From: Progne subis subis
Taxonomy: Eukaryota > Chordata > Aves > Passeriformes > Hirundinidae
Assembly (NCBI GenBank): GCA_022316685.1
Contig: JAKJHU010000082.1
Span: 62,001 to 126,000, forward strand
Direction of reading: 5' to 3'
Length of the DNA: 64,000 bases
Numbering within the stretch: the first letter of the stretch is position 1; the number at the start of each line of letters is the position of its first letter. Of the stretch, positions 7,455 through 57,400 are shown in pieces. The notes under the pieces were generated by a model. That model had not been told where the DNA came from, ran no database searches, and worked only from the letters and a program-made list of their open reading frames with translations. The translations under genes were made by a program, and so were the position numbers.

Positions 7455-8672
7455 GATCTACATTAAATTACGTAATTAACTGTGGTATTTCCTCTTCTCT
7501 GTAATGACAAACATTGTTCAAAGTTTACACTCATTATTATCTAATTTATAATGAGCCAAAATTCAAACTTCGAATCTAAATTTACCAAGTTAATCTAAAG
7601 AATTTAATATTTTTATTTTTAAAATATTGCAGACATTCCAATTTATGACCATTTTCCTACTTCTTGCAAATTCTTTCTGATATTGTCTTTGACAAATATC
7701 TGCTATCTTCCTAATAAAATGTGCAGTAGCTTCCTTTTTGTAATTGAGAGCTCTAAAACTTCTTAATTGCTGAGCCTCTGTGACTTTAAGATATATTGAG
7801 ATTTGAAGTTTTATTACTTTTGCACTTGAATATTGCAGTTTTCTCTTATTTGAAGTTGAAATAAGAGAAATTGGAGAAATTGGTGAAGTTGAAGCCAGAG
7901 AAATTGGTGAAAATATTTCAATTCATACAAAGGGACACTGATGGAGTTATTACTTGCATCAAAAGTCAAAGTATGTTCATGCTATTCTGAAAGTTTTATA
8001 ATGACTTCTGGTTCTAGTCTTTTTACAGTTTAAGACTTTTCACTTGACTTACAAAAGACAATTGTTATGCCTTAAATTTGCATATTTGCATGATTTATCC
8101 TGCCATATGTTTTCAGCCTCACTCACATTTTGTCAGCTTTGCTCTGTGCCTTCCCTGATGTGCAGCTCTGACTTGATGTGATAAGTTCAGGGTTAGATCT
8201 GTATTTAGATCTGTTAGATCTTGTGCTTCCAGCTTTAGGAGTACCTCAAATGCAAAGCTGGCTGTACGGTCATCCCCATTATAGCAGGACCAAGCCAGTG
8301 TAACTTCAGTAGATTTTGTTTGAAACTATTTTTCATTAATTGTGTGTCAGATTGACTGCCTGGAATGAGATTATCATTTTCATTGCCATTGCACTTTTGT
8401 ATTGCCCTGTTCCTCTAAAGGGTTGTGTTTGCTATGGAATATGCCATATCCTCCATGCTGTGGGAAGTCATGAACATTCGTAAAGTGCATGGCTAATCTT
8501 GAGAGTCTGTCATAGTTCCTGTACCAACACCAAACCAAGTGTGATATCCTTTTGCACGCTGGCCTTTGGGAAGGACGTGAAACTTTGATTGTACACAGGC
8601 TCCTCCTCTTTTAACCTGCTTGTCTGGGGCTGGCTCTTCTCAGCAAGAGCCTGCTTAATGGCCAGAAAGAGG
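7455..8672. other. AT-rich sequence without recognised features
   Basis: No gene or repeat is recognised. There are short imperfect repeats around 7850-7910 (AGAGAAATTGG units) but no supported coding frame. Confidence 0.5.
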
Positions 8673-9423
8673 TGTCTCAGTTTTGAAAGACAGTTGTCTG
8701 CCAAGGAAAAGCTAGAGCCTCCCTTGGAATGGAGATTGTAAATTCCCCTTCCCTCCTTATTATTATGATTTTGTAATTAGGGGCTTTCAGGCAAAGATAT
8801 GGGAATAGGAGTAACAGTTCTTTACTAGGGATATTAAAAAATAGAAAATACAAATGTAGTAGTACAAAAAAAACAAGCAAGGAAACAAACAAAAATCTGG
8901 GAAAAAACTCTGACCTCTAGAGTCAGGGATACAAGCTGGCATCCTGTTGGTCAGGGTGTTGGAAGCAGTTCAGATAAATCCTCCTGGAATTACAGATGTA
9001 GTTCTGTGGAATAGAGATGGTCCTGTAGAAAGTTCAGTGGCAACGAGATGAGTCCAGTCCACCTCTGGGAATCCAGTGGAAAAAACAGGATACCTTGTGT
9101 CCTTCAGTCCCAGTTTTTATCTAGCTAGGAACTGTTAGCTCCTCCCCCACTGTGTGGAGCATCTCCCAATGGGATGATGGAATGTGTCATGTCATTGGTG
9201 GGCCCTAATGGCCCATTATCAGAAGATGTCCCCTTGGAGAATGGAGGGGTGGTGAAAGAGATAAGAAACACTGCCCCACGTGGCTTTAATGGCTGGGCCA
9301 TTATCAGAAGGCATCCTCCTCCCTACCCCCTGGAGTTACAAGAGGAGGGCAACACATCTCCCAAAAAACAGCTTTCAACAGATGAAATAGAATATACATT
9401 TTTAAGTTACATAATTCAATACA
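8673..9423 (-). mobile_element. Solo ERVL-type LTR (copy A)
   Basis: A 751-bp LTR. Sense is inferred by matching its left edge, reverse complement ending CCAAGACA-like, to the ERVL provirus LTR. It is flanked by a perfect 5-bp duplication AGAGG (8668-8672 and 9424-9428), the size usual for ERVL. The same family recurs at 47075-47816 and 55872-56617. No internal region is attached. Confidence 0.87.
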
Positions 9424-10258: not shown

Positions 10259-10896
10259 TGTTGAGGGTCAAGTTCTCCTGTAGAATTTTTCCCCCCCCCG
10301 CCCCGTTTAAGTAGGGGCAGTTTAAGCGGTGCTTAACCTGACAAAAGAAGTTGATCACTTGGTTTTGGGGAAGGGAGGAGGCTCCGGAGAGAGCTGGGGG
10401 GTGGCCTCACTTCTCTCAGCTTTCCCGGGGAGGACGGTCGGACTACGGGTGGCTGCCTGGAGTCCACAGCTAATGGAGGAGTTTGGTCCTGGGAATTCTA
10501 TCATCTGTTAGAGCGCCCAGGAATTCGGAGTTTCTTCATTACCCTGCTGGATTTTGGGTCAGCCCGGGGTCCAGCCGCTGCGGGTTCTTCGGCACTGCCC
10601 ACTCCATCTGCCAGGGACACCCCCCTGCCTGCCAAGGACAATCCACCGCTTCCAGCTTGCAGCCATCAGCGACGGACTTTGCCACCGTTTGCCCTCAGGG
10701 TTCTTGGTTCTGTTTTACTGTTATTATAAGTGCTGTTGTTGTTTGTCTGTCCTGTTATATTTACTAGTAAAGGACTGTTATTCCTTTTCCCTATAGCTCT
10801 GACCGAAAGTTGTTTTTTTTTTTTAATCTTCTAAATTATAATAACCCGGAGGCTTGCCTCTCCTTAGCAGACAACTGTCTTTTTCAAACCAAGACA
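10259..10896 (+). repeat. 5' LTR of the ERVL provirus
   Basis: A 638-bp LTR, TGTTGAGG to CCAAGACA. Compared by eye with the 3' LTR I find substitutions near 10474 (T here, C there) and 10536 (A here, G there), a possible third in the T run near 10812, and length differences in C, G and T runs. A TATA-like TTATTATAAG lies near 10719. I see no AATAAA. Confidence 0.95.
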
Positions 10897-10901
10897 GAAT
10901 T

Positions 10902-10920
10902 TGGCGCCCAATTCGTGGGG
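10902..10920 (+). promoter_or_regulatory. Primer binding site, lysine-tRNA-like
   Basis: Five bases after the 5' LTR the sequence TGGCGCCCAATTCGTGGGG begins. The first nine bases match the start shared by retroviral PBSs for lysine tRNAs, and the rest resembles the Lys1,2 type with a small difference (ATT where AC is usual). Mammalian ERVL is named for a leucine PBS, so this assignment is notable. Confidence 0.65.
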
Positions 10921-16078: not shown

Positions 16079-16711
16079 TGTTGAGGGTCAAGTTCTCCTG
16101 TAGAATTTTTCCCCCCCCGCCCCGTTTAAGTAGGGGCAGTTTAAGCGGTGCTTAACCTGACAAAAGAAGTTGATCACTTGGTTTTGGGGAAGGGAGGAGG
16201 CTCCGGAGAGAGCTGGGGGGTGGCCTCACTTCTCTCAGCTTTCCCGGGGAGGACGGTCGGACTACGGGTGGCTGCCTGGAGTCCACAGCTAACGGAGGAG
16301 TTTGGTCCTGGGAATTCTATCATCTGTTAGAGCGCCCAGGAATTCGGAGTTTCTTCGTTACCCTGCTGGATTTTGGGTCAGCCCGGGGTCCAGCCGCTGC
16401 GGGTTCTTCGGCACTGCCCACTCCATCTGCCAGGACACCCCCCTGCCTGCCAAGGACAATCCACCGCTTCCAGCTTGCAGCCATCAGCGACGGACTTTGC
16501 CACCGTTTGCCCTCAGGGTTCTTGGTTCTGTTTTACTGTTATTATAAGTGCTGTTGTTGTTTGTCTGTCCTGTTATATTTACTAGTAAAGGACTGTTATT
16601 CCTTTTCCCTATAGCTCTGACCGAAAGTTTTTTTTTTTTAATCTTCTAAATTATAATAACCCGGAGGCTTGCCTCTCCTTAGCAGACAACTGTCTTTTTC
16701 AAACCAAGACA
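16079..16711 (+). repeat. 3' LTR of the ERVL provirus
   Basis: 633 bp, TGTTGAGG to CCAAGACA, followed by the GTATT duplication at 16712-16716. It is nearly identical to the 5' LTR, which indicates a recent insertion. Confidence 0.95.
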
Positions 16712-16716
16712 GTATT

Positions 16717-17273
16717 TAACTTAGGTTTTGTTTAATAAAGCTGTGATATTATACCATTTAATACATATTCATATTTAGATACTACCAAATTATGTCTTCT
16801 CAATTGTTTCACATTTACTGAGTGGGAATGTTATGGATATAAACCCTTTCAACATCAAAAATTCTACAAAACCTATTGATATATTCATACCTCACCATGT
16901 GCTCATATACTGTTGGAAATACTTCAGTGAGACCCCTCTATTAGCTCCTTCTTTTAGGAAAAGATAATCACAACTGGACATTCATAGTGATAGGATTAAA
17001 AAAAAAAAAAAAAAAAATCTTGGATACTTCCATTGCTGGAAGATGGAAGGCACATCTTAAGGTGTTAACGCCTCTTAGACTAAGGTCAGGTTTGTATTTT
17101 ACTAAATGATAAGAGACAGGGACAAGTGATTGTAATGTAATTGCACATCAGCAGGGCTTATATAGATTAGATAAGGTGCTTCTCTTTGTGATATGTTTGA
17201 TGTTGATGGCCATTGCATTGGCTTATCTGGTGGAGTAAGGATCAGAAAGCTCAAACATAAGCTTTTATATTGG
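16717..17273. other. AT-rich gap with a poly-A run
   Basis: No gene is seen. A run of about 19 A residues lies at about 16999-17017. Confidence 0.5.
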
Positions 17274-24117: not shown

Positions 24118-24796
24118 TGAGACGTTAATTTTGAGGAACTAAGGATTTTTAGGAAAGTTAAGATAATAAGCTGCTGAATTAGCTGAAGTAGATAGGTAAT
24201 CTTTGTTCGCAGTTAACAGAAGCCGGATCTTAGATAAGCTACCCCAGATCTTGTAACTCATTTCTTGTCAGCTTTATGTTTATGTAGTTGTGCTTGTAAT
24301 GAAAAACAAAATGTGGTAAATAGGACATAAGATAGCTGCAGATTTCCTGCTTAAAGGACCCATTGAACACAGGAAACTGTAAGTTCTACCAAGGATTCAT
24401 TTGTCACAAATGCATTGAAAAGGCAGAAAGGTCAGGACGAGGAAGACTCATCTTACTTCCTCGTTTTGGGTGACCCCTCCCCAGAATAGACCCCCGACTC
24501 ATTTTAAGAAACAAAGTACGCATGCTTAATAGCCTTTTTGCCAATTAGCATACGAAGCGAGGAATTGGAGGTGACAGGGTTATGAATATGCATTTGTATT
24601 TTGGATATTCAACACTTTTGTAAATAAAAGGGTTTGTAATTACCTGTGAATTTCGCAGTGCGAATTAGGGAAATACCCCGCGTGCCTGCCGGCCGTAATA
24701 AACATACGCTTTCTAACTTTAAACTGTTAGAGAGTCTTTGTCCGTCACAGTTGGGTATTGTTACTAGATCAGTACCCATATTTCTTTAATAAGTCA
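24118..24796 (+). mobile_element. Nested LTR-like element Y, copy 1 (4-bp target duplication)
   Basis: 679 bp from TGAGACG to AATAAGTCA, with imperfect terminal inverted repeats of about 11 bp and the duplication CTTT on both sides (24114-24117 and 24797-24800). The host LTR resumes exactly across the site. A 4-bp duplication and AATAAA signals (near 24624 and 24697) fit a class I solo LTR. A second copy is at 52353-53002 plus 46087-46116. Confidence 0.8.
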
Positions 24797-41236: not shown

Positions 41237-42799
41237 TGTCAGATGCGGTTAGTCTCTCTCTTGGAGCCCTGGCTAGCTCAAGAGACAGACTAACCACAGT
41301 AGAAAGGATTTTTTCCTCAGGACCCCAAAAATCCCAGGAGTAGCTGTGAACCTTTTCTTTTAGAGAGAGCAGGTCCCAGTCAATGGCAAAGGAAGGTCTG
41401 CACTTGATCCAGGGGGAAATCAAGACTTTTTTCAGTCTTTCTCCTTGTGGTCCTGTCCAGTCCTGGGTCAGGAGCCCGATCCCTGTCCCCAGACCAAGAG
41501 AGGGATTTCCACACTGTGTCCTGGCTTATATCAGGGGAAGGGGCTAAAAGCAGGTACAAGCCACTACCCAATTGTTACTTGGACACGCAAAGCAGTCACA
41601 TGAGACAAGAGATTTTCGCAGGACAGAGACTTCTCTGACCAGCTCAAGCTGAGTCAGGACGGAGAGCCTCCTTGTTTCTTTCTTACTTTTTATACATTTC
41701 TGGGTCTGGTCGAGCATTGGCTTCTTGGGTCTTCCACCCCTCAGCCTCAGTGGCTAGACCAACTGTCAGTTAAAATTGTTTTCAGGTTAGAAATATGCAA
41801 ACAAAGGACACAGAATGAAAAAAAAGGATTTGTTTATGTTACATATGTGGGAAAAAGGTAGAAATTGATCCTAATATTGTGCAGTAGCTAAAAAATCTGA
41901 CTCCATTTTTATGAAAATCAAAAGGCTATAAAAAACTCAGAAAAACCAGAGTAACACCCAATCAGGGATAAAGTGGGATGTAGTGGTGTGGGATTTGTTT
42001 TGGTTTTATTGCATGTGCTGTTGATTTATTGAGTGGTTCCTTTTATGTACCCCTCTTTGTTTCCCCTCAATGGTCTTTCCCTGTTTTTCTCCCCTCCAAC
42101 TGTTATATGTCAATCCCCCACCCCCCTCCTCTGGGGTCTGCCTGTCATCTCGCGGCCTTCCCCTGGAGCTAGAAAGTTCTTCCAAGGGCGTCGAGTGATA
42201 GGTCAGATCCAGAGGGGGTCCCTCCCCATCATTTATGTTTGGTTTATGAAAATATCATTCATCTGTGTGACCCCTCCCTGGTGATCCCTGATTTGCTCAC
42301 CCCCTGCCTCTTCTCCTTGTTCTACTCCCAAATAAAAGGTGCTGGCAAGCAGCCTGGGGGGCTCTGCCTGGGCAGTTACCTGGAGGTGAGGAGGTCCCGC
42401 GCCAGGGCTCCAATAAAATCTTGTGACCCGCTCAGCAGAGTCTGCCTTTCTATCTCTGCTGTCGTTGCCTTGCACCACCTGTGCCTACTGCCGAGGTCAC
42501 GTGGGAGCCAAGACCCCACAGGATCGATTAGCTGGTGTGGCCAGCGGTCCATACCTTTCCACGCTGTGGTGCCTGAGCTAGCCCGAGCGAGCGTGGAGAC
42601 CACGCTTAAGGCGCTGCAACAGCAGGAGAGGAACAGAGTTGGATTACATTCCAGTGTGGGAGAATGGGCAGGGAAAAGGGGCAGTTACAAACCTCAGGAT
42701 GATACATTTTCCAGGGGAACAGGGGAGTACAGAAGAAACCATTACAAAACCCAATATAAAAATGAAATACAATATAAACCCAAATAATACACAGCAACA
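41237..42799 (-). mobile_element. Class II LTR (family X) interrupted by an LTR-bearing insert
   Basis: On the minus strand the LTR starts TGTTGCTGTG at 42799, runs to about 42627, and resumes at about 41575 down to a TGACA end at 41237. The resumed part matches the family X LTR at 45.6-46.1 kb (GTGGCTTGT..., GATCAAGTGCAGACCTTCCT, TACTCCTGGG). The intervening 1.05 kb is foreign. I could not identify target duplications, so the exact ends are uncertain. Confidence 0.65.
41576..42621 (+). mobile_element. Insert carrying a class II-type LTR in plus orientation
   Basis: The right part (about 42000-42621) has LTR layout: a TATA-like AAATAAAAGG near 42331, an AATAAAATC signal near 42411 and an end in GCAACA. 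It resembles the LTR at 54126-54783 in its TTCTAGAAAG-type U3. The left part (41576-42000) looks like a reverse-oriented LTR piece with a TATA box near 41689 on the minus strand. Exact composition is unresolved. Confidence 0.5.
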
Positions 42800-45602: not shown

Positions 45603-46086
45603 TGTGTTAGAACTCCTACAGGCCTAATAATACTTAGATAGAAAAATAGTATTTTGATTATTTAAAAGTAGTGCTAAAGTTGGGTTTTAAAATGGTTTGT
45701 TCTATATCCCCTCTTCCCCTGGAAAATGTAACATCCTGAAGTTTGTCCCTGCCCTTCCCCCATCCCATCTCCCACATTGTTCCCTTCCTGGAATGTAATC
45801 CAACCCTGTACCACTCCCACATTATCCCTGTTTGGTGGTGGCTTGTCACCACGTTTAGCCCCTTCCCTGGATATAATCCAAGACCATGCAAGCTGCCCTT
45901 CTTCTTGGGTCAGGGAGTGGGAAGGGGCTCCTGACCCAGGCTGGGGCAGGACCACAGAAGAAAGACTGAATAAAGCCCTGGTTTCACCCTCGGATCAAGT
46001 GCAGACCTTCCTTTGCCATCGATGGGGACTCACCTTCTCTGCTAAGGGAAAGGTTCTCCGCCACTCCTGGGTTTTGGGACCCTGAG
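45603..46086 (+). mobile_element. Class II LTR (family X), 5' and middle part
   Basis: U3 and R of an LTR with GAATAAAGCC (AATAAA near 45969) and CTCCTGGGTTTTGGGACCC. It breaks off after CCCTGAG at 46086. The missing end of the LTR is found in reverse at 52263-52352. The start is uncertain within about 20 bp (TGTGTTAG at 45603). It is followed by the terminal 30 bases of element Y. Confidence 0.7.
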
Positions 46087-46116
46087 TAACTTATTAAAGA
46101 AATATGGGTACTGATC
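46087..46116 (-). mobile_element. Terminal 30 bases of nested element Y, copy 2
   Basis: Reverse complement of the last 30 bases of Y copy 1 (24767-24796), with one difference. It adjoins TGAG of LTR X on the left and integrase sequence on the right. The body of this copy is at 52353-53002 in the other orientation. Confidence 0.85.
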
Positions 46117-47069
46117 CTGCCAAAGGATGTGATGTGTGTCACGTCTGTCTGCCATACCTCACAGCTGTTCAATCCCCTGGGGTTTGCTCCTGCACTTAGG
46201 GCTGGGAGTGCATGTTGCTGGCATGAGGGACACATTGACACAATTGCCCGAGCCTGTTCCTGAGTTAGGTGGAACTGGCAGACGAGGCCTGGTGCATTCT
46301 GGTGAAAAAGCTGGTGGCTGATCTTCACTTGTTCGAAGATGTTCAGGATTGGGGCCATCTCTGCAAGTGCAGCAAGAGCATCAGCCCTACTGTTGCCCTC
46401 TACTATGAATCCTGGTAAATTGGTGTGTGATCTGATGTGCATCACATAAAATTGCTGCTCTCGGTGGGAGACCAGATTCACTAGTTTTGAGAGCAAATTA
46501 AACAGTGCAGTGTTGGAGACCTCTTTCAGCACAGCTTGCTCAGCTCTGGATACTACACCTGCTACATATGCTGAATCTGTGATCAAACTGAATAGCTCAG
46601 GAAACCTTTCAAAAGCTCTAATAACTGCAGCCAGCTCAGCTACCTGAGGTGATCCTTCCACCCTGGCAATATCTGCCTCCCACCGCTGAGTCTGAAGATC
46701 CTTCCAAGTCATTACTGACTTGTGGGATGCTCCGGAGGCATCTGTAAAAATGGTTAGATCCTTTAGGGGTCTCCAGCTCTGAACACATTTTTGTGATAAT
46801 TTAAATTGAATTTTTTCTAGGAATAATTTGTGGGCAGGCCGATGAATTGAAATTTGACCTGTGTAGCTATCCAGAGCAAACTGCAGAGCTTCTTCTCTTG
46901 AAGCAGGTGCTCCAACATTGCTTCTGTAATTTGGCCTTATTTTAATTCAACTGGGATGTGAATGCACTTAAAATCACACCCTGCCAACTCCCTGATCCAG
47001 GTCCTAGCCTTCCAGATCAACTCTGCCACCAGTTCCTGTGGCCTGGTCATTCTTTTGGACTGGTGCTGA
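46117..47069 (-). pseudogene. pol: Class II RNase H and integrase N-terminal half
   Basis: The minus-strand frame (about 46712 to 46117) holds RNase H motifs VAELAAVIRAFERFP, ITDSAYVAGVVS, HIRSHTNLPGF and ADALAALAEM. The integrase zinc domain follows, with H residues in SHQLFHQNAPG and CPSCQQ, then the core start CEVWQTDVTHITSFGR. The protein ends there: the next bases belong to element Y, so the DDE core is absent. The upstream portion (about 46713-47069), linker and RNase H start, is broken by stops. This is the 5' half of an integrase whose other half lies at 53003. Confidence 0.88.
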
Positions 47070-47074
47070 CTGAG

Positions 47075-47816
47075 TTTCCTAGATTATGTAACCTAAAAAT
47101 GTGTATTCTATTTCATCTGTTGAAAACTGGTTTTTGGGAGATGTTTTATCCTTCTCTTGTAACCCCAGCAGGGAGGGGAGCGGATGCCTTCTGAAAATGG
47201 CCCAGCCATTAAAACCACGTGGGGCAGTGTTTCTTATCTCTTTCACCACCCCTCCATCCTCCAGGGAGACCTCTTCTGATAATGGGCCATTAGAGCCCAC
47301 CAACGACAGGACACATTCCATCATCCCATTGGGAGATGCTCCACACAGTGGGGGAGGAGGCAGCTGTTCCTAGCTAGATAAAAACTGGGGCTGAAGAGCA
47401 TAAGGTATCCAGTTTTTCCACTGGATTCCCGGAGGAAGACCAGACCCATTTAATCACCACTGGACTTTCTACAGGACCATCTCTACTCCACAGAACCACA
47501 TCTGTTACTCCAGGAGGACTTATTTGGACTGCTTCCAACACCCTGACTAACAGAATGCCAGGTTGTATCCCTGACTCTGTCAGGGTGTTTTCCCAGATTT
47601 TCTGTTTGCTTCCTTGCTTGTATTTTTGTACTATTATTTTTGTATTTTCCTTTTTTAGTATCCCTAGTAAAGAACTGTTACTTCTATTCCCATATCTTTG
47701 CCTGAAAGCCCCTAATTACAAAATTATAATAATTTGGAGGGAAGGGGGTTTATGTTCTCCATTCTCATACTCTCTAGCTTTTCCTTAGCATACAACTGTC
47801 TTTCAAAACCAAGACA
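47075..47816 (+). mobile_element. Solo ERVL-type LTR (copy B) inside class II pol
   Basis: 742 bp, same family as copies A and C, ending AAACCAAGACA. It is flanked by perfect CTGAG duplications (47070-47074 and 47817-47821). The minus-strand pol frame reads across the site if the LTR is ignored (IIEWVFLS before, then the QSKR-type stretch after), so it inserted into pol. Confidence 0.92.
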
Positions 47817-47821
47817 CTGAG

Positions 47822-49200
47822 GAAAACCCACTCTATGATTAAGAGGGGATCCTTACAGTCTTTGTCCTTTTTTGACTTGTCCACTTTCTGCCACTGGAAG
47901 ATCACCCCATGGATTTGTGGCAGTTTGCCTAAAATGATGAATATAAAGGCAGGTCTGGTCTGCATCTGTTGGCCTGTCTGGTGCCCATACATTCCTTCAC
48001 CTTTTCTAGGGCTGCTCGTGCCTCTTGAGTAAGGGTCCTAGGAAAACTTAGCTCCTCTCCCATTTCAACAGGTTGAAGAGGGGGTCTAGGTCCTCGGTGG
48101 CCAGACCCAGCCAAGGCCTTACCCAGTTCAAATACCCACATAAACTGCTGGACATCTGCCAAGATCTTGATGTTATTTTTTAACAGCTAATTTTTGCAGC
48201 ACAATGGTCCGCTTACCAATCTCCAGACCCAGGTACTTCCAAGGCAGCATCCTTTGAATCTTGTCCTCCTGAAGCTCGAACCCTGCAGCAACCAAAGAAT
48301 CGATTGTCAGGTCAAGTGCGTGGGACAGTAAGTCATCACTGGGGGCACACAAGAGCACATTATCCATATAGTGCAGGATGATGACTTCTCCTGCAGCTTC
48401 ACGTACTGGGGACAGCAAGGAAGAGAAGTAAAACTAGCAAATAAATGACGAGCTCTTCATCCCCTGGGGAAGAAATTTCCAGTGGTATCTCTTCCTCGGG
48501 GCTTCTCAGTTGATGGTTGGGACTGAGAAGGTGAAACATGGGGCATCATCAGGGTGCAGAGGAATCTGGAAAAAACAATCTTTGATATCAATAATTGCCA
48601 AATTCCAATGACGGAGGTCGTGGAGGAGCCGCCACTTGCCTTTGTTTGCCTTTTTGATAACAAAGACCAGGGTATTCCACAGTGACATGGTCTCTACAAT
48701 GTGGCCTTTAGCCAGCTGCTCATCCACTAGCTCCTGAAGTGCCTTCAGTTTTTCTTCACTGAGCGGCTGCAGCTTCACCCAGACTGGCGGATCACTTTTC
48801 CATTTGAATTTCTGGGTAGGGCACTTTTCAGTGACTGGTGTCCAAAAAACCGGAGGTGCATCTGAGATGCCAATTTTGATCCCCCACTGGGCCATCATAT
48901 CTCTCCCCAGTTAGGGCTCCAAATAATCCAAAACAAATGGACACAATGTAGGCAATTTTCTGTTTGGCCCGTCAATTTGCGGGACACTCTTTGGCTGTTT
49001 AGCCAATTGCATTCCCCCTACACCTTGTACATGTGCAGCCACGTTTTGCAGTTCCCAATGTGACAGCCACATCCTTTCGGGTATGATCATCACATCTATC
49101 CTCGTTTCCAAAAGTCCTTTGATGCTTTTGACTTCCCCACCCTGACACACCTCACACCACATTTTGTGTTTGTCCCTCCCAATGACTTTTGTGGTGCAAA
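47822..49200 (-). pseudogene. pol: Class II protease and reverse transcriptase
   Basis: The protease (about 48911-49200) has the retroviral fold pattern, but the active site DTGA is replaced by ETRI at 49097-49108, so it is dead. It continues in another frame at 48898 into RT (KWKSDPPVWVKLQPLSEEKL, RLLHDLR, IIDIKDCFFQIPLHPDDAP). RT appears shortened between LLHDLR and IIDIKD, lacking the usual linking segment. The second RT piece (48173-48418) has HYMDN at the catalytic site, where the second Asp of YMDD is now Asn (48359-48370). The thumb/connection follows to 47822 (IFQWQKVDKSKKD), where LTR B interrupts. Confidence 0.87.
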
Positions 49201-49777
49201 CCTCAGGATGTCTGTTCCTTGTGATGACCTTCTCAAGGAACTTTTGGCAGCATTTCTGGCTTCCTCAGCTAAATCATCCCAAAATGATTGTGCCTGCCTT
49301 TTTCCCTCAGCAGGGCTTGAGGGCTTTGGAGAGAGCCTTTGCTCCTGCGAGTCTCTGCACTCGGCAGAGCCAACCTTATCAACAGCCTGAACACTTTCAT
49401 TGACCTTCAGACCGCATTCTTTCATTATCTGACAATTCTTTGTAAAAGTTTGCATCGCAGCCCCCACACAGAGCGGTGGAGTAAATCGCAAACAGTTCTG
49501 TGCAGCTTGCCAGGTCTCTTGCTCTTGCAGAGCCTTTTGCAATGCCTGCACAACTTTTCCCCATAATTTAAGATTTTTCCCTGAGCCAGAAGACATTGTC
49601 TCCTCGGCCAGAGCTTTCGTACATTGATCCCATATATCTGGGTGGAGAATGTCCACCGCTCGATCAATGACCCCAAGTTGCAAAAGCCTCGTCACTGCGA
49701 GAGGTAAAATCTTTTGCTTTACAATCAATCCCCCATTATTTATGAATCTGAGATGTGACCTTCATGAGAGCTTCCAT
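49096..49777 (-). pseudogene. gag: Class II gag, matrix-like part only
   Basis: An ATG at 49777-49775 opens a short frame that hits a stop. The main frame (49728-49096) reads VTRLLQLGVIDRAVDILHPD and ALAEETMSSGSGKNLKLWGK, helical matrix-like sequence, then a low-complexity linker. It passes directly into protease within about 500 bp. Capsid and nucleocapsid are missing: no major homology region and no CCHC knuckle are seen. It is therefore an internally deleted element. Confidence in class II gag is moderate and rests on its position between the LTR/PBS and protease. Confidence 0.7.
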
Positions 49778-49876
49778 CCTCCTCTCGCGGGTCCGGGAGC
49801 ATCCTCCCCACCAAGCTGGCCCCGCCACTCGGCCACCGTTCACCCGTCCAGGCGACTCCCATTCTCCCAGGCGATG

Positions 49877-49895
49877 TCCCGGGGTTTCAGCACCA
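49877..49895 (-). promoter_or_regulatory. Primer binding site, phenylalanine-tRNA-like
   Basis: On the minus strand TGGTGCTGAAACCCCGGGA begins three bases after the LTR end. It resembles the complement of a vertebrate tRNA-Phe 3' end with one substitution and one extra C. This orients the element leftward. Confidence 0.65.
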
Positions 49896-49897
49896 CT

Positions 49898-50192
49898 TGC
49901 TGCCTCCGCTGAGGCGTAGCAACCTGGTTCAGGAACAACACGGCAGCCACACTCATGCTGCTCAGGCCATTAGCTCACAGACACCAATGTGGTAGATGGC
50001 AAATGGCATTTATTGACAGGTTACATGGGGGTTATAAAACTTCTGTTTACTACATCACTTCCGTCTGTTTACGTTTCAAACTAGGTGTTGCTTAGCTTAT
50101 CAAGGGGAGTAAACAACTAGCTGTTGAGGGAGGGGTTCTGTCTTCCCTGTACAACACGATGTCTTCTGACCGCCTGTCCCTAATCTCCCACA
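49898..50192 (-). repeat. 5' LTR of the minus-strand class II element (about 295 bp)
   Basis: In sense orientation it starts TGTGGGAG at 50192 and ends GCAGCA at 49898. It has a TATA-like TTTTATAACC, then TCAATAAATGCC (AATAAA) about 45 bp later, then a U5 of roughly 100 bp. Short LTRs opening TGTGGGA also occur at 57749. The outer target duplication cannot be checked, because the other end of the element is rearranged. Confidence 0.7.
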
Positions 50193-50830
50193 GCTGCCCT
50201 TAAAAGGCAGGGAGGGTGGGGAAATGAGGCGTAAGTCAAACTGTTCCCTTGGCCACCCCGCATCTGCCCTTTTGCAGCCTCTCTCAGAAGCGCAGCCGGC
50301 CAGCACTACTGCCTCTCTCAAGAGGAGAGCCAGTGGCCCCCCTTTGCCTCTACTGGCGGGGCGGGGACCGTGCGGAGCCGAAGCTGCCCTTGACCTGCCT
50401 ACAGGTGATACAAAGAGCCAGGAGCGGCGAGGCTCAGCCCCTGTCCTCCTTCCTGGCTTGGCTGCCCCGCCCCTCTCCGAATGCCGGAGTGGGAGTGGAA
50501 CCACCCGCAATGCTCGGGCGCCTGCGGGGGCCCGGGCACAGGGAAAAGAAACTTCGGCCACTGCCGGAGCCACCATGGGGAGTATGGAGGGGGCTGGGCA
50601 CGAAAAAAGAGAGTGGGGGAAAGAGAGCCTGGCTGCCACGGTTGCAGCCCCTGCAGCGCCGTGGGAGCTGAACACAGAGAGACTCCGGCCGCCGCCGCTG
50701 CCGCCACAGAGAAGGCTCGGCACAGCCCTCTTTGGGCTGCATCTCCATCTTCCCCCACCCCCAAACACCCGCAGAGGGAACAAAGAAAAAGAAAACACAG
50801 TAGAATTAGCACTAAAATCACACAACTAAC
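50193..50830. other. GC- and CpG-rich block with overlapping ORFs on both strands
   Basis: Sharply GC-rich compared with its surroundings, with CCGCCGCCG-type repeats. The plus strand has a 201-codon frame from ATG 50224 to 50829 and an internal ATG near 50574 in a strong start context (GCCACCATGG). The minus strand has 241 codons at 50100-50825. Both are Pro/Ala/Gly/Arg-rich with no domain I recognise, and long frames are expected by chance in such composition. It lies between two class II pieces and could be LTR, gag linker or a captured CpG-rich sequence. Not called as a gene. Confidence 0.4.
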
Positions 50831-50904
50831 ACAAGTTGAAACCCCGGTCCCCACCACAACCTCCCCGGGCCAAGCAGCCTCCGCACAGTCTGCAGTGTGT
50901 CTGT

Positions 50905-51369
50905 CTGCCAGTCTGTCAACAAATCTTCCCTCCAAAGGCTGAATAGAATTATTATCATCCAGGGCTGCACCGCTGCTGTCTGTCCTTTTGCATTTGTGAC
51001 CAGGACAGACTGTGGCCATACAAAGACTGGTATTCTGCTTCCCGATCCTGTGATGCCCGGTCCCACAGCCAGAGGCCAGGTGGTAGGCCACGCAGAGAAG
51101 GATATGACCGTGATGCCAGTGCCGGGGTCAAGAAGACCTTCAAGCTGGATCTGAGGCGGGCTGGCTGGAAGCGTCGAAGGCAGGGGAGGGTAGCAATGAT
51201 GGACGCTGCGAGAGAATGACGATCCCGGCCGGTCACACCATGAGCACCGTCCCCACTGACAGGGAGGGCAGATGCAGACGCTTGCTCTGACCCCGCAGAC
51301 AGAAGCAGCGGAGCTGGGGGAGGCAAAAGGAGTTGTCTGCAGTGGAGAATCTTCCATGGCCGCTTGCAA
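50905..51369 (-). pseudogene. pro: Second class II protease fragment
   Basis: The minus-strand frame from 51369 contains IQLEGLLDPGTGITVIS, then SVLVTNAKGQTAAVQPW and SLWREDLLTDW, matching the order of retroviral protease: active site, flap, LWGRD-type C-terminus. The catalytic motif is DPGT at about 51118-51129 instead of DTGA, so it is inactive. It differs from the protease at 49.1 kb, so it belongs to another class II lineage. The frame after LLTDW is not RT. The upstream 80 residues are Cys/Ser/Pro-rich; a relation to dUTPase is possible but unproven. Confidence 0.65.
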
Positions 51370-51584
51370 TGCAGAGAAATCCCAGCTGTCGGTCAGTCAG
51401 TGAGGGATGACCTTCACAGAAGACATAGTCTGTCCTGTCTAGAGGGCCTGTTCCTCAGTGGAATTTCAGTTTCTCCTTTTAGGAAAAACTTGTGCTATAA
51501 AATACTTTTAAGAGGAGTTTCTGATATTGTTTGTTGCTAGTAGTATCTGTTCTAAAAAGTATTGATTCAAAGGTTATAAGTTAT

Positions 51585-52004
51585 TGTGACACTGTACAGG
51601 TGTAAAATGCCATGTCAATCATGGCAGGAAAAAGAGGGGTGGGGAAGAGTTAGTTTTTGCCGGTTACATCACCCTGAGCCGTGATTGGTGGACGTGACTG
51701 ACCAATCATTCGATGCCCTCGGAAAATGACTGGTCAGGAATGACTCTCGAATAAAGACCAATCAGGACCCTGACAATGGACCAATAAGGGGAAGGATCCA
51801 AAATGCCCCAATCAGGAGAAGGCAAAGAAGATAAAAGAGACTGTAAGACTGTGGGGGGCGGGGAGGGTCCTCCTTCAGAACCTTTAGGGGTCTGAAGGAG
51901 CACCCAGTGTGGTGTTGCACTGTCTGTTGTTTTCTGGCTCACCAAGAGGAACTTGGGCCTATCCTAGGTTCCCACTTCCAGTGGTTGTTAAAGTTAAATT
52001 AACA
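51585..52004 (+). promoter_or_regulatory. CCAAT-box-rich LTR-like segment
   Basis: Within about 135 bp (51680-51815) there are several CCAAT boxes: GATTGG, GACCAATCA twice, GACCAATAAG and CCCCAATCAGG. A TATA-like GATAAAAG follows near 51829 and then a G-rich stretch. This is the layout of a retroviral U3 promoter. Candidate ends TGTGACAC and AATTAACA give 420 bp, but no target duplication was found. Confidence 0.45.
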
Positions 52005-52244
52005 AGTGCCTTTTTTTTCATCATTACATTTGAGTCCTGACCTCATTTCTAATACTTGTGCCCCAACGACCTGTGTATGCAGAGTTGCAGTTACCCAGTG
52101 GTTCCTCCTGGGAAGAGGAACACTAGCTTGGTTGGGTGCCATTGCAGACCTGCTCAACTTGGCTGAGTCCTTTACCCCGTGGTGGAAGGGACCACCCTCC
52201 TCTGGTGGAGGATGACTTCTGTCCTTCAGCTCTTGGCTGAAGAG
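52005..52244 (-). pseudogene. Leader or start of gag after a Trp-type PBS
   Basis: The sequence immediately downstream (minus strand) of the PBS is open for 82 codons (52247-51999), with an ATG-led part from about 52143. No domain is recognised. By position it should be the leader and gag start of the element whose LTR is family X. It is cut by the CCAAT-rich segment. Confidence 0.4.
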
Positions 52245-52262
52245 CAAACATCAGGGTCACCA
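52245..52262 (-). promoter_or_regulatory. Primer binding site, tryptophan-tRNA-like
   Basis: The minus strand reads TGGTGACCCTGATGTTTG directly after an LTR end (CACACA). It matches the known tRNA-Trp PBS of avian leukosis-type viruses at about 14 of 18 positions, with several differences explained by CpG decay. Confidence 0.7.
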
Positions 52263-52352
52263 TGTGTGGTTTGTCTCCCTCACGGAGCCCCGGCTCTGTT
52301 TTTGCCCCGGCTAGCTTGAGAGAAAAAACTCAGTTAGAAGGAGCTTTCCTCA
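52263..52352 (-). mobile_element. Class II LTR (family X), 3' end segment
   Basis: On the minus strand this is TGAGGAAAG to CACACA, homologous to the end of the family X LTR at 41.24 kb (GTTAGTCTG..., GAGCTAGCC). It abuts the PBS on one side and element Y on the other. Its missing front part is at 45603-46086, ending in TGAG at 46083-46086; CTCA at 52349-52352 is the matching half of the Y target duplication. Confidence 0.78.
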
Positions 52353-53002
52353 TGAGATATTAATTTTGAGGAACTAAGGATTTTTAAGAAAGTTAAGATA
52401 ATAAGCTGCTGAATTAGCTGAAGTAGATAGGTAATCTTTGTTTGCAGTTAACAGAAGCCGGATCTTAGATAAGCTACCCCAGATCTTGTAACTCATTTCT
52501 TGTCAGCTTTATGTTTATGTAGTTGTGCTTGTAATGAAAAACAAAATGTGGTAAATAGGACATAAGATAGCTGCAGATTTCCTGCTTAAAGGACCCATTG
52601 AACACAGGAAACTGTAAGTTCTACCAAGGATTCATTTGTCACGAATGCATTGAAAAGGTAGACAGGTCAAGACGAGGAAGACTCATCTTACTTCCTCATT
52701 TTGGGTGACCCCTCCCCAGAATAGACCCCCGACTCATTTTAAGAAACAAAGTACTCATGCTTAATAGCCTTTTTGCCAATTAGCATACGAAGCGAGGAAT
52801 GGGAGGTGACAGGGGTATGAATATGCATTTGTATTTTGGATATTCAACACTTTTGTAAATTTTGTAATTACCTGTGAATTTCGCAGTGCAAATTAGGGAA
52901 ATACCCTGCGTGCTGCCTGGCCGTAAACATACGTAAACATACGCTTTCTAACTTTAAACTGTTAGAGAGTCTTTGTCCGTCACAGTTGGGTATCGATACT
53001 AG
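52353..53002 (+). mobile_element. Nested element Y, copy 2, body (3' end severed)
   Basis: Near-identical over its length to Y copy 1 (24118-24766), with a small deletion near 52860. It ends at ACTAG, exactly where the 30-base fragment at 46087-46116 begins. No Y bases are lost between the two pieces, apart from about one shared base. Confidence 0.88.
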
Positions 53003-53985
53003 GTATCTGTGGACACCTTTTCTGGAGCTGTCTATGCCTCTGCCCACACAGGGGAGAAGTCTGGTAATGCCATGAAACACCTAATACAGGCTTTCTCCTT
53101 CCTGGTCATCTCCAAGGCACTGAAAACTGATAACAGGCCCATGTACAAGTCCAAAGAATTCAGAATCTTCCTGCAGCAATGGGGAGTAGAGCACAAAACT
53201 GGCATGCCTTACTCCCTGACAGGTCAAGCATCATGGAAGAGACCCACCAGTACATCAGAAGGGTCCTCAGCCAGCAACAACAGGCTGTAAACATAGAACC
53301 ACCCTCAATCTGGTTCTCCAAGGCCTTGTTCACATAAAATTTTTTAAATTGCTCATTCGAAAGTTTTAACCTGTTAATCGTGTGCCATTTCAGAGAAAAC
53401 TGCCAACTGCAGCTGAAAGCAAAGTCACCAGTAATGTTTAAAGATCCAGCAACCTGGGAGACTGTTGTATTTCCCCACGAGACTAGATGACCGCCGATGG
53501 CAAAAGTAAAAGAGTCTGCTCTTTCACCGGGTGGGATATTACAGCTTTTATTCTCAAGTCCTGCCCTGCTTAGCTGGAGCCCATCCCGATCACTTGCCGG
53601 TGCCAGAGAGAGCTTGGCCCCGACCCAAGCAGAGGCTTTTCCCCCCAGGGGCAGGGCCAGAGGCAGGGACAAGACATCACCTAATCAGGGAGAAGTGGCA
53701 GTGGAAGAGTTAGGTTACAGCTGAGTAAGGACAACCCACGATACAGATTACAGATCCAATAAACATAACACAATTAATGCATTACAACAGGAGACAAAGG
53801 GTCCTTACGATCTGTTCACCTGGTGTTGTAGATACGCCCGCGTGTCCACTCCCTCAGGTCTCAAGTGGGTGCCATCCAAGTGGGTGAAACCTTTCATCCC
53901 TAGAAGTGCAAAACCACCAGCAGAAGCCCCACAAGTGGTTAGCACCACCTGGAGAAGGAAAAAGCGCCAAACCCTCTCCCTCTAA
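53003..53985 (+). pseudogene. pol: Class II integrase C-terminal half
   Basis: It begins abruptly inside the core with VSVDTFSGAVYASAHTGEKS, where D is the first catalytic Asp. The second Asp (LKTDNRP) is present. The Glu position appears lost: the expected ERxH context reads SWKRPT after GQA, apparently through a frameshift near 53226. The region to 53462 is the degraded end of the core. After a nested LTR the C-terminal domain resumes at 53796 (GPYDLFTW, then STPSGLKWVPSKWVKPFIP), ending in a basic tail near 53985. No zinc-binding N-terminus precedes it; that half is at 46117 on the other strand. Confidence 0.85.
53463..53789. mobile_element. 327-bp solo LTR nested in integrase
   Basis: The termini TGTTGTA and TACAACA form a perfect 7-bp inverted repeat, and GGAGAC is duplicated on both sides (53457-53462 and 53790-53795). 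Integrase reads on after it. AATAAA occurs on both strands; the minus-strand one (followed by about 90 bp of U5-like sequence) fits LTR layout better, so I favour minus orientation. Confidence 0.9.
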
Positions 53986-54125: not shown

Positions 54126-54783
54126 TGTTGCATTGTGCTCTGTGTTATTTATTTTCATATTGAATTTTTTGTTATTTATTTTCATTGTAAGAATTTGTTC
54201 TGTACTCCCCTGTTCTCCTGAGAAATGTTACATTCCAAGGTTTGTGTCCCTGCCCCTCTTCGCTGTCAATCCTCCCATATTCCTCCCAGTCCCCTCCTAC
54301 AGGCCCTGCCTATCACCTGTCATTCGATTGTTCCTCCCAGCTTCTAGAAAGCTTGGGTAAGGGCATTGAGTAATAGGGCAGGAGCCAAGGAGGTTCCTCC
54401 CTTTATGTTCTCATTAGTTTCTTTGAATGTCCCTCCAACCCTGTTCCATTCCCACCTTTTCCCTCATTGGATGTTAGTTTGTCTCCTCCCTTAGTCCCTC
54501 CCCTGTATTTAATCCCGGAGCTGACTGCCCCAGGCAGCGCGGCTAGAGAGACTCCCTGAGGATGTCTCCTGCATGGGACTGAATAAACACCTTGGACTTC
54601 ACCCTCTAACTGAGTCTGACTCCTCCCTCCGTCTTCGGTGAAGTCTTTCCCGTGATAAGGGGAAAACGCCCTTTTGCCGCTCCTCAGGTTTCCAAATCCA
54701 GAGGAGTGTTCCCTGACTGATCACTGTGTCAGAGCTAGCCTGGGTGGAAGGAGCCACCGCTTTGAGAAGGACACAGCGACACA
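54126..54783 (+). repeat. 3' LTR of class II element (658 bp)
   Basis: Starts TGTTGCATTG and ends CAGCGACACA. Features are CTGTATTTAATCC as a TATA-like site and CTGAATAAACACC (AATAAA near 54581), followed by a U5 of about 200 bp. It is related in layout and in the U3 start to family X but is not close enough to be the twin of the X LTR at 45.6 kb. Its right edge joins the pol relic of another element. Confidence 0.82.
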
Positions 54784-55321
54784 TGTTATCTGAATTAATT
54801 GTTCCTTTGATAATTAAATGCCGTTAACAGTGTTTGCAGTTAAGTGGCAGCTGATCCTGCAATAATTGTTGCTCCAATATAGCAGGAAGACTTCTAATGG
54901 AGCCTTGTAAACAGCAAACAGTGCTCCTTTGCAAAGTGTGCTACAAATTTTCAAGGCAGATCACTTATCACTTGCTCAGTCATAAATTATTGAAATTGAT
55001 CAAATCAACCAATTTGTCAATGTGGGTGTTGGTGCAAGGATCACTGTCTTTTACTGACAGTTCAGAAAAAAACAGGAAAAAGCCATTGTTACCTGGAAGG
55101 ATGAATCTGACTGGCAAATGCTAGAGGGTCACAAATCAAGCATGGCCCTGATTGCTTGAATTGAGGGCTGTTGCCATGGCATCCTAACAATTTCTTCAAG
55201 TATCCCTGAATTTGGTTATTGAATCTGCATATGCAGCAGACATAACCAAATGTTTGGATTGTTCACTTCTGAAAGAGGTCAATAATGCAACTTTGTTTTA
55301 ATTATTGAAAGCTTTGTGGCC
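54784..55321 (+). pseudogene. pol: Class II RT connection and RNase H relic
   Basis: Starts mid-gene against the LTR at 54783. The broken frames read as connection domain (near 54785-54830; the KLLKLIKSTN stretch near 55000). RNase H follows: SLSFTDSSEKNRKK near 55045, then LNLVIESAYAADITK near 55210 where the usual Asp is Glu, then CSLLKEVNNATLF. It is cut at 55321 by a solo LTR. Several stops and frameshifts; distinct from the pol at 46-49 kb. Confidence 0.78.
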
Positions 55322-55610
55322 TGTTGACACAGTTTGTGAGTTTTGTGAGATGTTTACAGTTTTGTAGCTGAGTTCTCAGGTTTGTGCCATAAACAATCGG
55401 TTTTTACATTCCTCTCTGATGAGAGTCATCTGATTGACTTGTAGCCTGGCCAGGGGGATGGAGAGGTGGTAACCTTGTTCTCCAATCCTTGGTCATTGTT
55501 CAGAATCTGTATAAGTGAGGTCTTGGAAAATAATAGTAATTTTTTTCTTCAGCCTTCTTGGAGTCAAAAGATTGTGTGAGTATTCATTCTCTTTGTGTCC
55601 TCTAGTGACA
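55322..55610 (+). mobile_element. Short class II solo LTR nested in pol (289 bp)
   Basis: Same family as 35017-35297: it starts TGTTGACAC, shares TTTTGTGAGATGTTTACAG and GTGGTAACCTTGTTCTCC, has a TATAAG box near 55510 and ends CTAGTGACA. The flanks GTGGCC and GTGGTG share four of six bases, a decayed 6-bp duplication. Confidence 0.83.
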
Positions 55611-55871
55611 GTGGTGTGCAATTCAAGTGTAAAGTTACCTATATTAGATCCTACACAGTCTGAGTGACTCCAGTTTACCAGGTTTCATATTAGAAGGTAA
55701 TCCCAGGGTTGACAAGTTAGCTAATCTTATATGGGTAGCACCTCAGCCTGACAAAATTTTGCAAATCAAAGTGCTGCATGATTTTCCATCAAAGTGCACA
55801 TACTTTGCAGAAGCAGATTCAGTTAACACCAACTGAGGTTCGTTCAATTGTCAGTTCTTGTGCTGTCATGG
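55611..55871 (+). pseudogene. pol: Class II RNase H end and integrase zinc domain, first part
   Basis: RNase H resumes after the LTR near 55635 and reads DKLANLIWVAPQPDK near 55705-55760. It enters the integrase zinc domain, with LHDF and QIQLTPTEVRSIVSSCAV in two frames, to 55871. LTR copy C cuts the domain just after the Cys. Confidence 0.75.
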
Positions 55872-56617
55872 TGTATTGGATTATGTAACCTAAAAAATGT
55901 GTATTCTGTTTCATCTGTTGAAAACTGGTTTTTGGGAGATGTTTTATCCTTCTCTTGTAACCCCAGCAGGGAGGGGAGCGGATGCCTTCTGAAAATGGCC
56001 CAGCCATTAAAACCACAGTGGGGCAGTGTTTCTTATCTCTTTCACCACCCCTCCATCCTCCAGGGAGACCTCTTCTGATAATGGGCCATTAGGGCCCACC
56101 AACGACAGGACACATTCCGTCATCCCATTGGGAGATGCTCCACACAGTGGGGGAGGAGGCAGCTGTTCCTAGCTAGATAAAAACTGGGGCTGAAGAGCAT
56201 AAGGTATCCAGTTTTTCCACTGGATGCCCGGAGGAAGACCAGACCCATTTAATCACCACTGGACTTTCTACAGGATCATCTCTACTCCACAGAACCACAT
56301 CTGTTACTCCAGGAGGACTTATTTGGACTGCTTCCAACACCCTGACCAACAGAATGCCAGGTTGTATCCCTGACTCTGTCAGGGTGTTTTCCCAGATTTT
56401 TGTTTGCTTCCTTGCTTGTATTTTTGTACTATTACATTTATATTTTTTTTTCCTTAATATTCTTAGTAAAGAACTGTTACTTCTATTCCCATATCTTTGC
56501 CTGAAAGCCCCTAATTACAAAATTATAATAATTTGGAGGGAAGGGGGTTTACATTCTCCATTCCAAGGGAGGCTCTAGCTTTTCCTTGGCAGACAACTGT
56601 CTTTCAAAACCAAGACA
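55872..56617 (+). mobile_element. Solo ERVL-type LTR (copy C) nested in integrase
   Basis: 746 bp, TGTATTGG to CCAAGACA, nearly identical to copy B (few differences by eye). The flanks CATGG (55867-55871) and CATGA (56618-56622) are a 5-bp duplication with one mismatch. Integrase coding resumes on the right. Confidence 0.9.
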
Positions 56618-57400
56618 CATGACCTTGCTGCACTTTTGCCAGCTGGGGATAAACCCCAGAGGCCTGAAAGCCCTGCAGCATTGGCAAAGAGATTTCACTC
56701 ATATTGCTGAATTTGGGTGACTTAAGTACCTGCACGTGTTTTATTGACATTTTCTCCTCTGCCATGTGGACATCTGCTTATATTGGAGAAAAGGGATTGC
56801 AATGTTATTGCCCATTGGGAAATGGTTTTTGCAATCTTAGTTATATCTTCTGCCGTGAAACTGATAATGGTCTTGCTTATGTCTTACAGAAGACGCAGCA
56901 GTCTCCACAGTGTATGGGGAATGTCTCATGAATTTGGCATTCTGCATTCTCCAACTGGTCAAGCCATTGTTGAATGCGCTCATGGCATCCTAAAGCATGT
57001 TCTGTTTTTACTAAAAAAGGGGGAATTCCTGGAGAAACCCAGCACAGTCAGTTGGAAAAGGTTTTATATGCAATTGATCACTTTGCAGTGCCACAAAAAT
57101 GCAATCAATCATGTCATTCTAAATTACTTCCTTTTTGTTGCAGTCATCAAGTGAGATGCACTTGCCTTGAGTGAGGTCTGGGTATGGGATCTAACCACTA
57201 TAAGTGGGAAGGCCTCTGTGGGCTTATTGCTTGAGGTTGCAGGTATGCCTCTGTTTCCACAGATTCTGGGGCATGATGGATAACCACAAGGTGTGTTCGC
57301 CCTGACCTGCGACATCTAAAGCAGAATGTGGCCATTAGGCAACATTTGAATGATGATCAGGATGCTGATCATCACTCAGACAATTTTTTCTACAAGTAGA
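56618..57400 (+). pseudogene. pol: Class II integrase, core and C-terminal domain
   Basis: Continues the zinc domain (CHDLAALLPAGDKP-like), then the core in shifting frames: LKYLHVFIDIFSSAMWTSAY with the first Asp, then SAVKLIM where the second Asp motif has decayed. Then HEFGILHSPTGQAIVECAHG, with the catalytic Glu, is in frame 56744-57154, and LKKGEFLEKPSTVSWKRFY follows. The C-terminal domain lies at 57160-57400 in other frames. Non-functional. No env is recognised after it. Confidence 0.82.

What the first reader, a model, noticed from the sequence alone, without database searches (positions are those of the whole stretch)
46083..53010. A 6.9-kb inversion cuts both an integrase gene and a nested LTR
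Seen: Y copy 2 is missing its last 30 bases, and those bases sit reversed at 46087-46116, 6.2 kb away. LTR X is split in the same way: CCCTGAG stops at 46086, and its remainder (TGAGGAAAG...) sits reversed at 52263-52352. The TGAG duplication of the Y insertion is therefore found one half at each place. On the other sides of the two cuts lie complementary halves of integrase: minus strand ending after THITSFGR at 46117, plus strand starting VSVDTFSG at 53003. Undoing one inversion makes Y, LTR X and integrase each continuous in a single step; about 15 bases of integrase may be lost. Inference: one two-break inversion with little or no homology at the cuts.
Basis: partly seen in the sequence, partly recalled or inferred. 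Interest (0 to 1): 0.87.

Follow-up and report, generated by a model that had tools for sequence, protein, structure and literature searches.

The report
Small inversion splitting bird retrovirus remnants
In what looks like bird DNA, a 6.9-kb stretch packed with old retrovirus remnants has been flipped end to end by a two-break accident, cutting virus relics and one virus gene in two; it is clear in the sequence but of an ordinary kind.

Summary
LTR Y copy 2 (52353-53002) lacks its last 29 bases (not 30); they lie reversed at 46087-46115, 28 of 29 identical to Y copy 1. LTR X stops at 46086 and resumes, reversed, at 52352, each half with one TGAG; a related X-type LTR near 41.3 kb reads through that point. 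The integrase halves are complementary: in the best-matching solved integrases the first ends at residue 74 and the second starts at 80, and 67 of 73 bird relatives that match both halves put exactly five residues between them. A reciprocal two-break inversion of 46117-53002 (6,886 bp), with 1 nt of microhomology and about 15 bases lost, explains all three splits. No homology flanks the cuts beyond chance, so end joining of two breaks is the likeliest cause. Songbird inversions of 51 bp to about 100 kb are on record (PMC7341801). No reads and no orthologous locus could be examined, so assembly error is unlikely but not excluded. Low interest.

The parts
45672..46086 (+). Head of LTR X (X-type LTR; left end not exactly placed)
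   Evidence: 45831-46086 matches the X-type LTR on the minus strand at 41316-41571 at 79%; left end judged by eye
46083..46086 (+). TGAG, first copy of the target duplication made by insertion of Y into X
   Evidence: the X-type LTR near 41.3 kb has a single copy
46087..46115 (-). Last 29 bases of Y copy 2, left outside the inverted block
   Evidence: 28 of 29 identical to the end of Y copy 1; no match in 100 shuffles
46116..46117 (.). Left inversion junction; base 46116 fits both sides (1 nt microhomology)
   Evidence: read
46116..46946 (-). RNase H and N-terminal integrase half of a class II (ERVK-like) pol
   Evidence: Pfam RNase_H and Integrase_Zn; up to 84% identical to swallow proteins
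47082..47820 (.). Inserted repeat of about 740 bp between reverse transcriptase and RNase H; further copies at 55879-56622 and 8672-9423
   Evidence: self comparison; pol matches on either side of it are collinear, e.g. P0033
48173..48910 (-). Reverse transcriptase remnants
   Evidence: Pfam RVT_1 in two pieces, one of them (24 bits) below the curated cut-off of 29.6; about 73% identity to bird pol proteins
48911..49264 (-). Protease remnant B, next to the reverse transcriptase
   Evidence: Pfam RVP, marginal (20.8 bits, cut-off 20.7)
49096..49761 (-). Gag matrix remnant
   Evidence: Pfam Retro_M, marginal (26.3 bits, cut-off 25)
50818..51396 (-). Second protease remnant A, sign of another provirus in the block
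   Evidence: Pfam RVP, E 4.7e-7
52263..52352 (-). Tail of LTR X, inverted (inner end judged by eye)
52349..52352 (-). TGAG, second copy of the target duplication, inverted
52353..53002 (+). LTR Y copy 2 without its last 29 bases
   Evidence: 626 of 642 aligned positions identical to Y copy 1, 16 gap positions
53002..53003 (.). Right inversion junction
53003..53463 (+). C-terminal integrase half (core from after the lost residues)
   Evidence: Pfam rve; solved integrases; swallow protein P0055 residues 259-338 and 352-412
53464..53820 (.). Inserted sequence of about 360 bp inside the C-terminal integrase half
   Evidence: gap between two collinear matches to P0055
53821..53982 (+). End of integrase
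   Evidence: P0055 residues 421-474, 74% identity; no Pfam match for 53836-53985
54126..54783 (+). LTR T downstream of integrase after a purine run, distantly X-like; ends judged by eye
24118..24796 (+). Y copy 1, comparison copy with CTTT on both sides

Best explanation
A reciprocal two-break inversion of window 46117-53002 (6,886 bp) inside a nest of avian endogenous retrovirus remnants. Shown by sequence: LTR Y lies in LTR X with a TGAG duplication, and Y, X and integrase are each split reciprocally between the same two places. Inferred: Y inserted into X first; later one break fell 29 bases from the end of Y and another in the integrase core of a class II (ERVK-like) pol; the piece between was rejoined the other way round, with about 15 bases of integrase lost and Y cut without detectable loss. 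Inferred too: repair by non-homologous end joining, since there is 1 nt of microhomology and no flanking homology. I propose no function; the relics also carry stops and insertions, and whether those came before or after the inversion is not known.
For: Reciprocal halves of Y and X. Complementary integrase halves: of the 8 solved chains listed for both halves, 3 give five residues between them directly and 3 more by projection; so do 67 of the 73 bird relatives that match both halves. One swallow protein, P0055, matches the N half, two C pieces and the tail in order. Relatives closest to one half tend to be closest to the other (Spearman 0.67 over 49 relatives). Reversed but orderly interior. 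Apart from dispersed repeats no second copy of the block in the window. The 600-base surroundings of the two cuts share no direct 10-mer and 2 inverted ones, which is not above random pairs.
Against: No raw reads, second assembly or orthologous locus was available; the genome search did not answer in five tries. 2 of the 8 solved chains listed for both halves (3hpg, 5m0r, distant) project to one residue between the halves, their alignments stopping short of the cut. 6 of the 73 bird relatives gave negative distances (-30, -34 or -43), not inspected; the 73 come from the 120 best of 283 hits. The C half is less similar to relatives than the N half (seven closest by N: N 88-93%, C 68-84%; P0005 and P0006: N 75-77%, C 42-49%), though 26 control pairs of relatives with N identity of 85-95% had a median C identity of 81% (range 54-98). 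One family does not prove one copy.
Confidence: 0.9

Rival explanations
1. Assembly error: the block was put in the wrong orientation by the assembler among near-identical repeats.
For: The region is dense in repeats; reads could not be examined. A passage of PMC3123225 notes that some inversions reported from genome comparisons were later suggested to be assembly artefacts.
Against: Misassembly normally switches inside shared sequence (general knowledge). Here both joins fall between unrelated sequences with 0-1 nt in common, reciprocally, with about 15 bases lost.
Confidence: 0.06
2. Template-switching replication repair rather than two breaks rejoined by end joining; the product is the same inversion, so this rival lies inside the best explanation.
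For: 1 nt of microhomology and a small deletion are compatible with either mechanism.
Against: I saw no templated insert or duplicated stretch at the junctions (read by eye). A single 1-nt overlap is what chance gives (44% of random joins).
Confidence: 0.12
3. The two integrase halves come from different proviruses of one family brought together by other rearrangements, and the match at the junction is a coincidence.
For: At least two proviruses contribute to the block: two protease remnants; LTR X and downstream LTR T are only distantly alike; the C half is less similar to relatives than the N half.
Against: The halves abut to within five residues in most relatives examined, and Y and X are split at the same two places, which one inversion already explains.
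Confidence: 0.07
4. Recombination between inverted repeats (ectopic homologous recombination).
For: Inverted repeat pairs are common in the window.
Against: The 600-base surroundings of the two cuts share 2 inverted 10-mers; random pairs average 2.8 and 41% share at least one. No repeat in the self comparison lies across both breakpoints.
Confidence: 0.01

Closest known systems
Segregating inversions in songbird genomes (crows; PMC7341801, passages seen)
   Same: Intrachromosomal inversions in songbirds; 694 inversions among 41,868 filtered variants, median 980 bp, range 51-99,824 bp, which includes this size
   Different: Those were called from reads of many individuals; here the event is read from split repeats in one sequence
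Human-chimpanzee inversions associated with retrotransposons (PMC2603318, passages seen)
   Same: Breakpoints inside mobile elements; some with loss of sequence (75 of 252)
   Different: 49 of those 252 are ascribed to recombination between inverted L1 or Alu pairs, and the deletions ran from 94 bp to 11,012 bp; here no homologous pair spans the cuts, the elements are LTR elements, and about 15 bases are lost
Avian microinversions (PMC3123225, outline with abstract, passages)
   Same: Small inversions in birds
   Different: A passage there favours limiting the term to inversions under about 400 bp, while another finds a 50-kb limit workable; this one is 6.9 kb
ERVK-like (class II) endogenous retroviruses of birds
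   Same: Pol domains and close protein relatives in swallow and other birds
   Different: This copy is broken by insertions and by the inversion

Membership tests
Simple reciprocal inversion | Both junctions exchange partners reciprocally | tested here: met
   Y, X and integrase halves at both places
Simple reciprocal inversion | Interior reversed as one block in consistent order | tested here: met
   X tail, protease A, gag matrix, protease B, reverse transcriptase, RNase H and integrase all on the minus strand along 52352-46117; from gag matrix on, in the usual provirus order
Simple reciprocal inversion | No second, uninverted copy of the block (not an inverted duplication) | tested here: inconclusive
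   none in the window apart from dispersed repeats; the rest of the genome could not be searched
Simple reciprocal inversion | Uninverted order in relatives or other individuals | not testable with these tools
   no bird genome at hand; the genome search unanswered
End-joining (non-homologous) repair | 0 to a few nt of microhomology, small loss, no flanking homology | tested here: met
   1 nt shared, about 15 bases lost, no direct shared 10-mer and inverted sharing not above random
Inversion by recombination between inverted repeats | Homologous inverted pair across both breakpoints | tested here: not met
Class II (ERVK-like) endogenous retrovirus | Protease, reverse transcriptase, RNase H and integrase domains with ERVK-named relatives | tested here: met
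   the protease B and one reverse transcriptase match are marginal or below cut-off
Class II (ERVK-like) endogenous retrovirus | 6-bp target duplication (recalled) and paired LTRs | tested here: inconclusive
   outer ends of the provirus not placed; X and T LTRs are too unlike to be a clear pair
Y as an LTR | TG start, CA end, short target duplication | tested here: met
   copy 1 TG...CA with CTTT on both sides; copy 2 starts TG, ends TA, with TGAG on both sides

The most novel reading that the evidence does not exclude
The break in Y was not random: it falls in the 9-base loop of a 9-bp hairpin near the end of the Y LTR (copy 1: z -2.2 and -2.6; 8 and 4 of 200 shuffles fold as well). Loops of such hairpins cover 1.5% of the window and 6.6% of Y copy 1, so hairpin-tip breakage at LTR ends may seed inversions in LTR-rich bird DNA. 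Against it: with looser hairpins the shares rise to 12.6% and 17.4%, copy 2's own stem has a mismatch (by eye), it is one case chosen after the fact, the other breakpoint cannot be tested because its bases are lost, and avian microinversion hotspots showed no stem-loop association (PMC3123225).
Probability: 0.06. Interest if true: 0.35.

Novelty: new member of a known kind. Interest (0 to 1): 0.14.

Why it matters
It is a clean example in which nested repeats, a target duplication and a coding frame together locate both breakpoints of an inversion to the base, without a second genome. It could serve as a rare marker between bird lineages and as a test case for split-repeat methods. It says little new about mechanism.

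Tried and rejected
Recombination between inverted repeats as the cause: rejected. Inverted duplication: no second copy in the window apart from dispersed repeats. Viral contig collection for relatives of both integrase halves: 6 and 10 stretches matched a pattern, none a confirmed relative. Hairpin at the Y breakpoint: suggestive only. Pairing LTR X with LTR T as the two ends of one provirus: too unlike to claim. The genome search for the window's own assembly did not complete, so genome-wide copy number and orthologous order are unknown.
Full report
What is there. The window looks like bird DNA, probably from a songbird: the closest pol relatives of the integrase half are proteins from barn swallow and other passerines, up to 84% identical; two non-passerine entries (P0037 nightjar, 81% over 65% of the query; P0061 gull, 87% over 56%) are also close, so the host is an inference. 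No source record was seen. The window is rich in repeats.

Y. Copy 1 (24118-24796) is an LTR with CTTT on both sides. Copy 2 (52353-53002) matches it at 626 of 642 aligned positions, with 16 gap positions, and stops 29 bases short of the end. Those 29 bases lie at 46087-46115 on the minus strand with 28 of 29 identical. Across the whole window, with up to 3 mismatches, only these two places match, and no shuffle of 100 gives any. Base 46116 fits both Y and integrase, which gives 1 nt of microhomology.

X. The plus-strand X head ends CCCTGAG at 46086. The minus-strand tail begins TGAGGAAAG at 52352. An X-type LTR on the minus strand near 41.3 kb (201 identities, 46 mismatches and 18 gaps over the matched part of the head) reads through this point with one TGAG; it has an unrelated insertion further along, at about 41.6-42.6 kb. 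This is an empty-site comparison in the same window and indicates that TGAG was duplicated when Y inserted.

Integrase. Pfam finds RNase_H and Integrase_Zn in the minus-strand piece and rve, from profile position 28, in the plus-strand piece. Searched apart, the pieces match three solved integrase chains (3jca, 5cz2, 7usf) at residues 3-74 and 80-160 (that these are from mouse mammary tumour virus is recalled, not from a call). Of the 8 chains listed for both pieces, 3 more (4fw2, 5ejk, 7jn3) project to the same five residues, and 2 distant ones (3hpg, 5m0r), whose alignments stop short of the cut, project to one. Of the 120 listed relatives (of 283 found), 99 match the integrase part of the N piece and 73 the C piece, and all 73 match both. 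In 67 of those 73 the distance is exactly five residues; in the other 6 it is negative (-30, -34 or -43) and was not inspected. A third, decayed integrase in the window (56.6-57.2 kb) also places the pieces about 15 bases apart, allowing for a one-base shift that I counted by hand. One swallow protein, P0055, is matched in order by the N half, the C half, a second C piece and the tail, at 70-89% identity.

Same family or not. Over 49 relatives with both full pieces, similarity to the N half and to the C half rank together (Spearman 0.67). The window's C half is less similar (68-84% for the seven closest by N) than its N half (88-93%), and P0005 and P0006 drop from 75-77% to 42-49%. As a control, 26 pairs of relatives with N identity of 85-95% have a median C identity of 81%, range 54-98; over all 1,176 pairs the correlation is only 0.38. 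One family is supported; one copy is inferred.

Mechanism. One reciprocal inversion of 46117-53002 explains all three splits. The two breakpoint surroundings (300 bases each side) share no direct 10-mer, and 2 inverted 10-mers where random pairs average 2.8 and 41% share at least one. A 1-nt overlap is expected in 44% of random joins. End joining of two breaks is therefore the simplest cause; template switching would leave the same product. The inferred order of events is: X inserted, Y inserted into X, then the inversion. Whether the other inserts and the stops came before or after it is not known.

The block is not one simple provirus. It holds two protease remnants on the minus strand (48911-49264, marginal; 50818-51396), a 740-bp repeat between reverse transcriptase and RNase H with two more copies in the window, and an insert of about 360 bp lies in the C half. 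LTR T at about 54.1-54.8 kb, after a purine run, is only distantly X-like.

Known context. In crows, 694 inversions were found among 41,868 filtered variants, median 980 bp, range 51-99,824 bp (PMC7341801, passages). Between human and chimpanzee, 252 inversions were characterised, 49 ascribed to recombination between inverted L1 or Alu pairs and 63 more with such an element at one breakpoint only (PMC2603318, passages). Avian microinversion hotspots showed no stem-loop association (PMC3123225, abstract and passages). Paper searches were made; none aimed at this particular locus, so I make no claim that it is not in print.

Verdict.

Noticed in passing
8672-9423, 47082-47820, 55879-56622: Three copies of one repeat of about 740 bp, 88-96% alike; one sits inside a pol gene.
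   Followed up: partly
50818-51396 and 48911-49264: Two separate retroviral protease remnants on the same strand within the inverted block, so at least two proviruses are nested or recombined.
   Followed up: partly
49900-50160: Stretch on the minus strand that looks by eye like a short LTR followed by a primer-binding site just upstream of the gag matrix remnant; no other copy in the window.
   Followed up: partly
54850-57200: A third, heavily decayed class II pol on the plus strand.
   Followed up: partly
10259-10902 and 16079-16717: Nearly identical direct repeats (98.8%) 5.8 kb apart, possibly the two LTRs of a young provirus.
   Followed up: no
24748-24782: 9-bp hairpin near the end of LTR Y with the inversion break in its loop.
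   Followed up: partly
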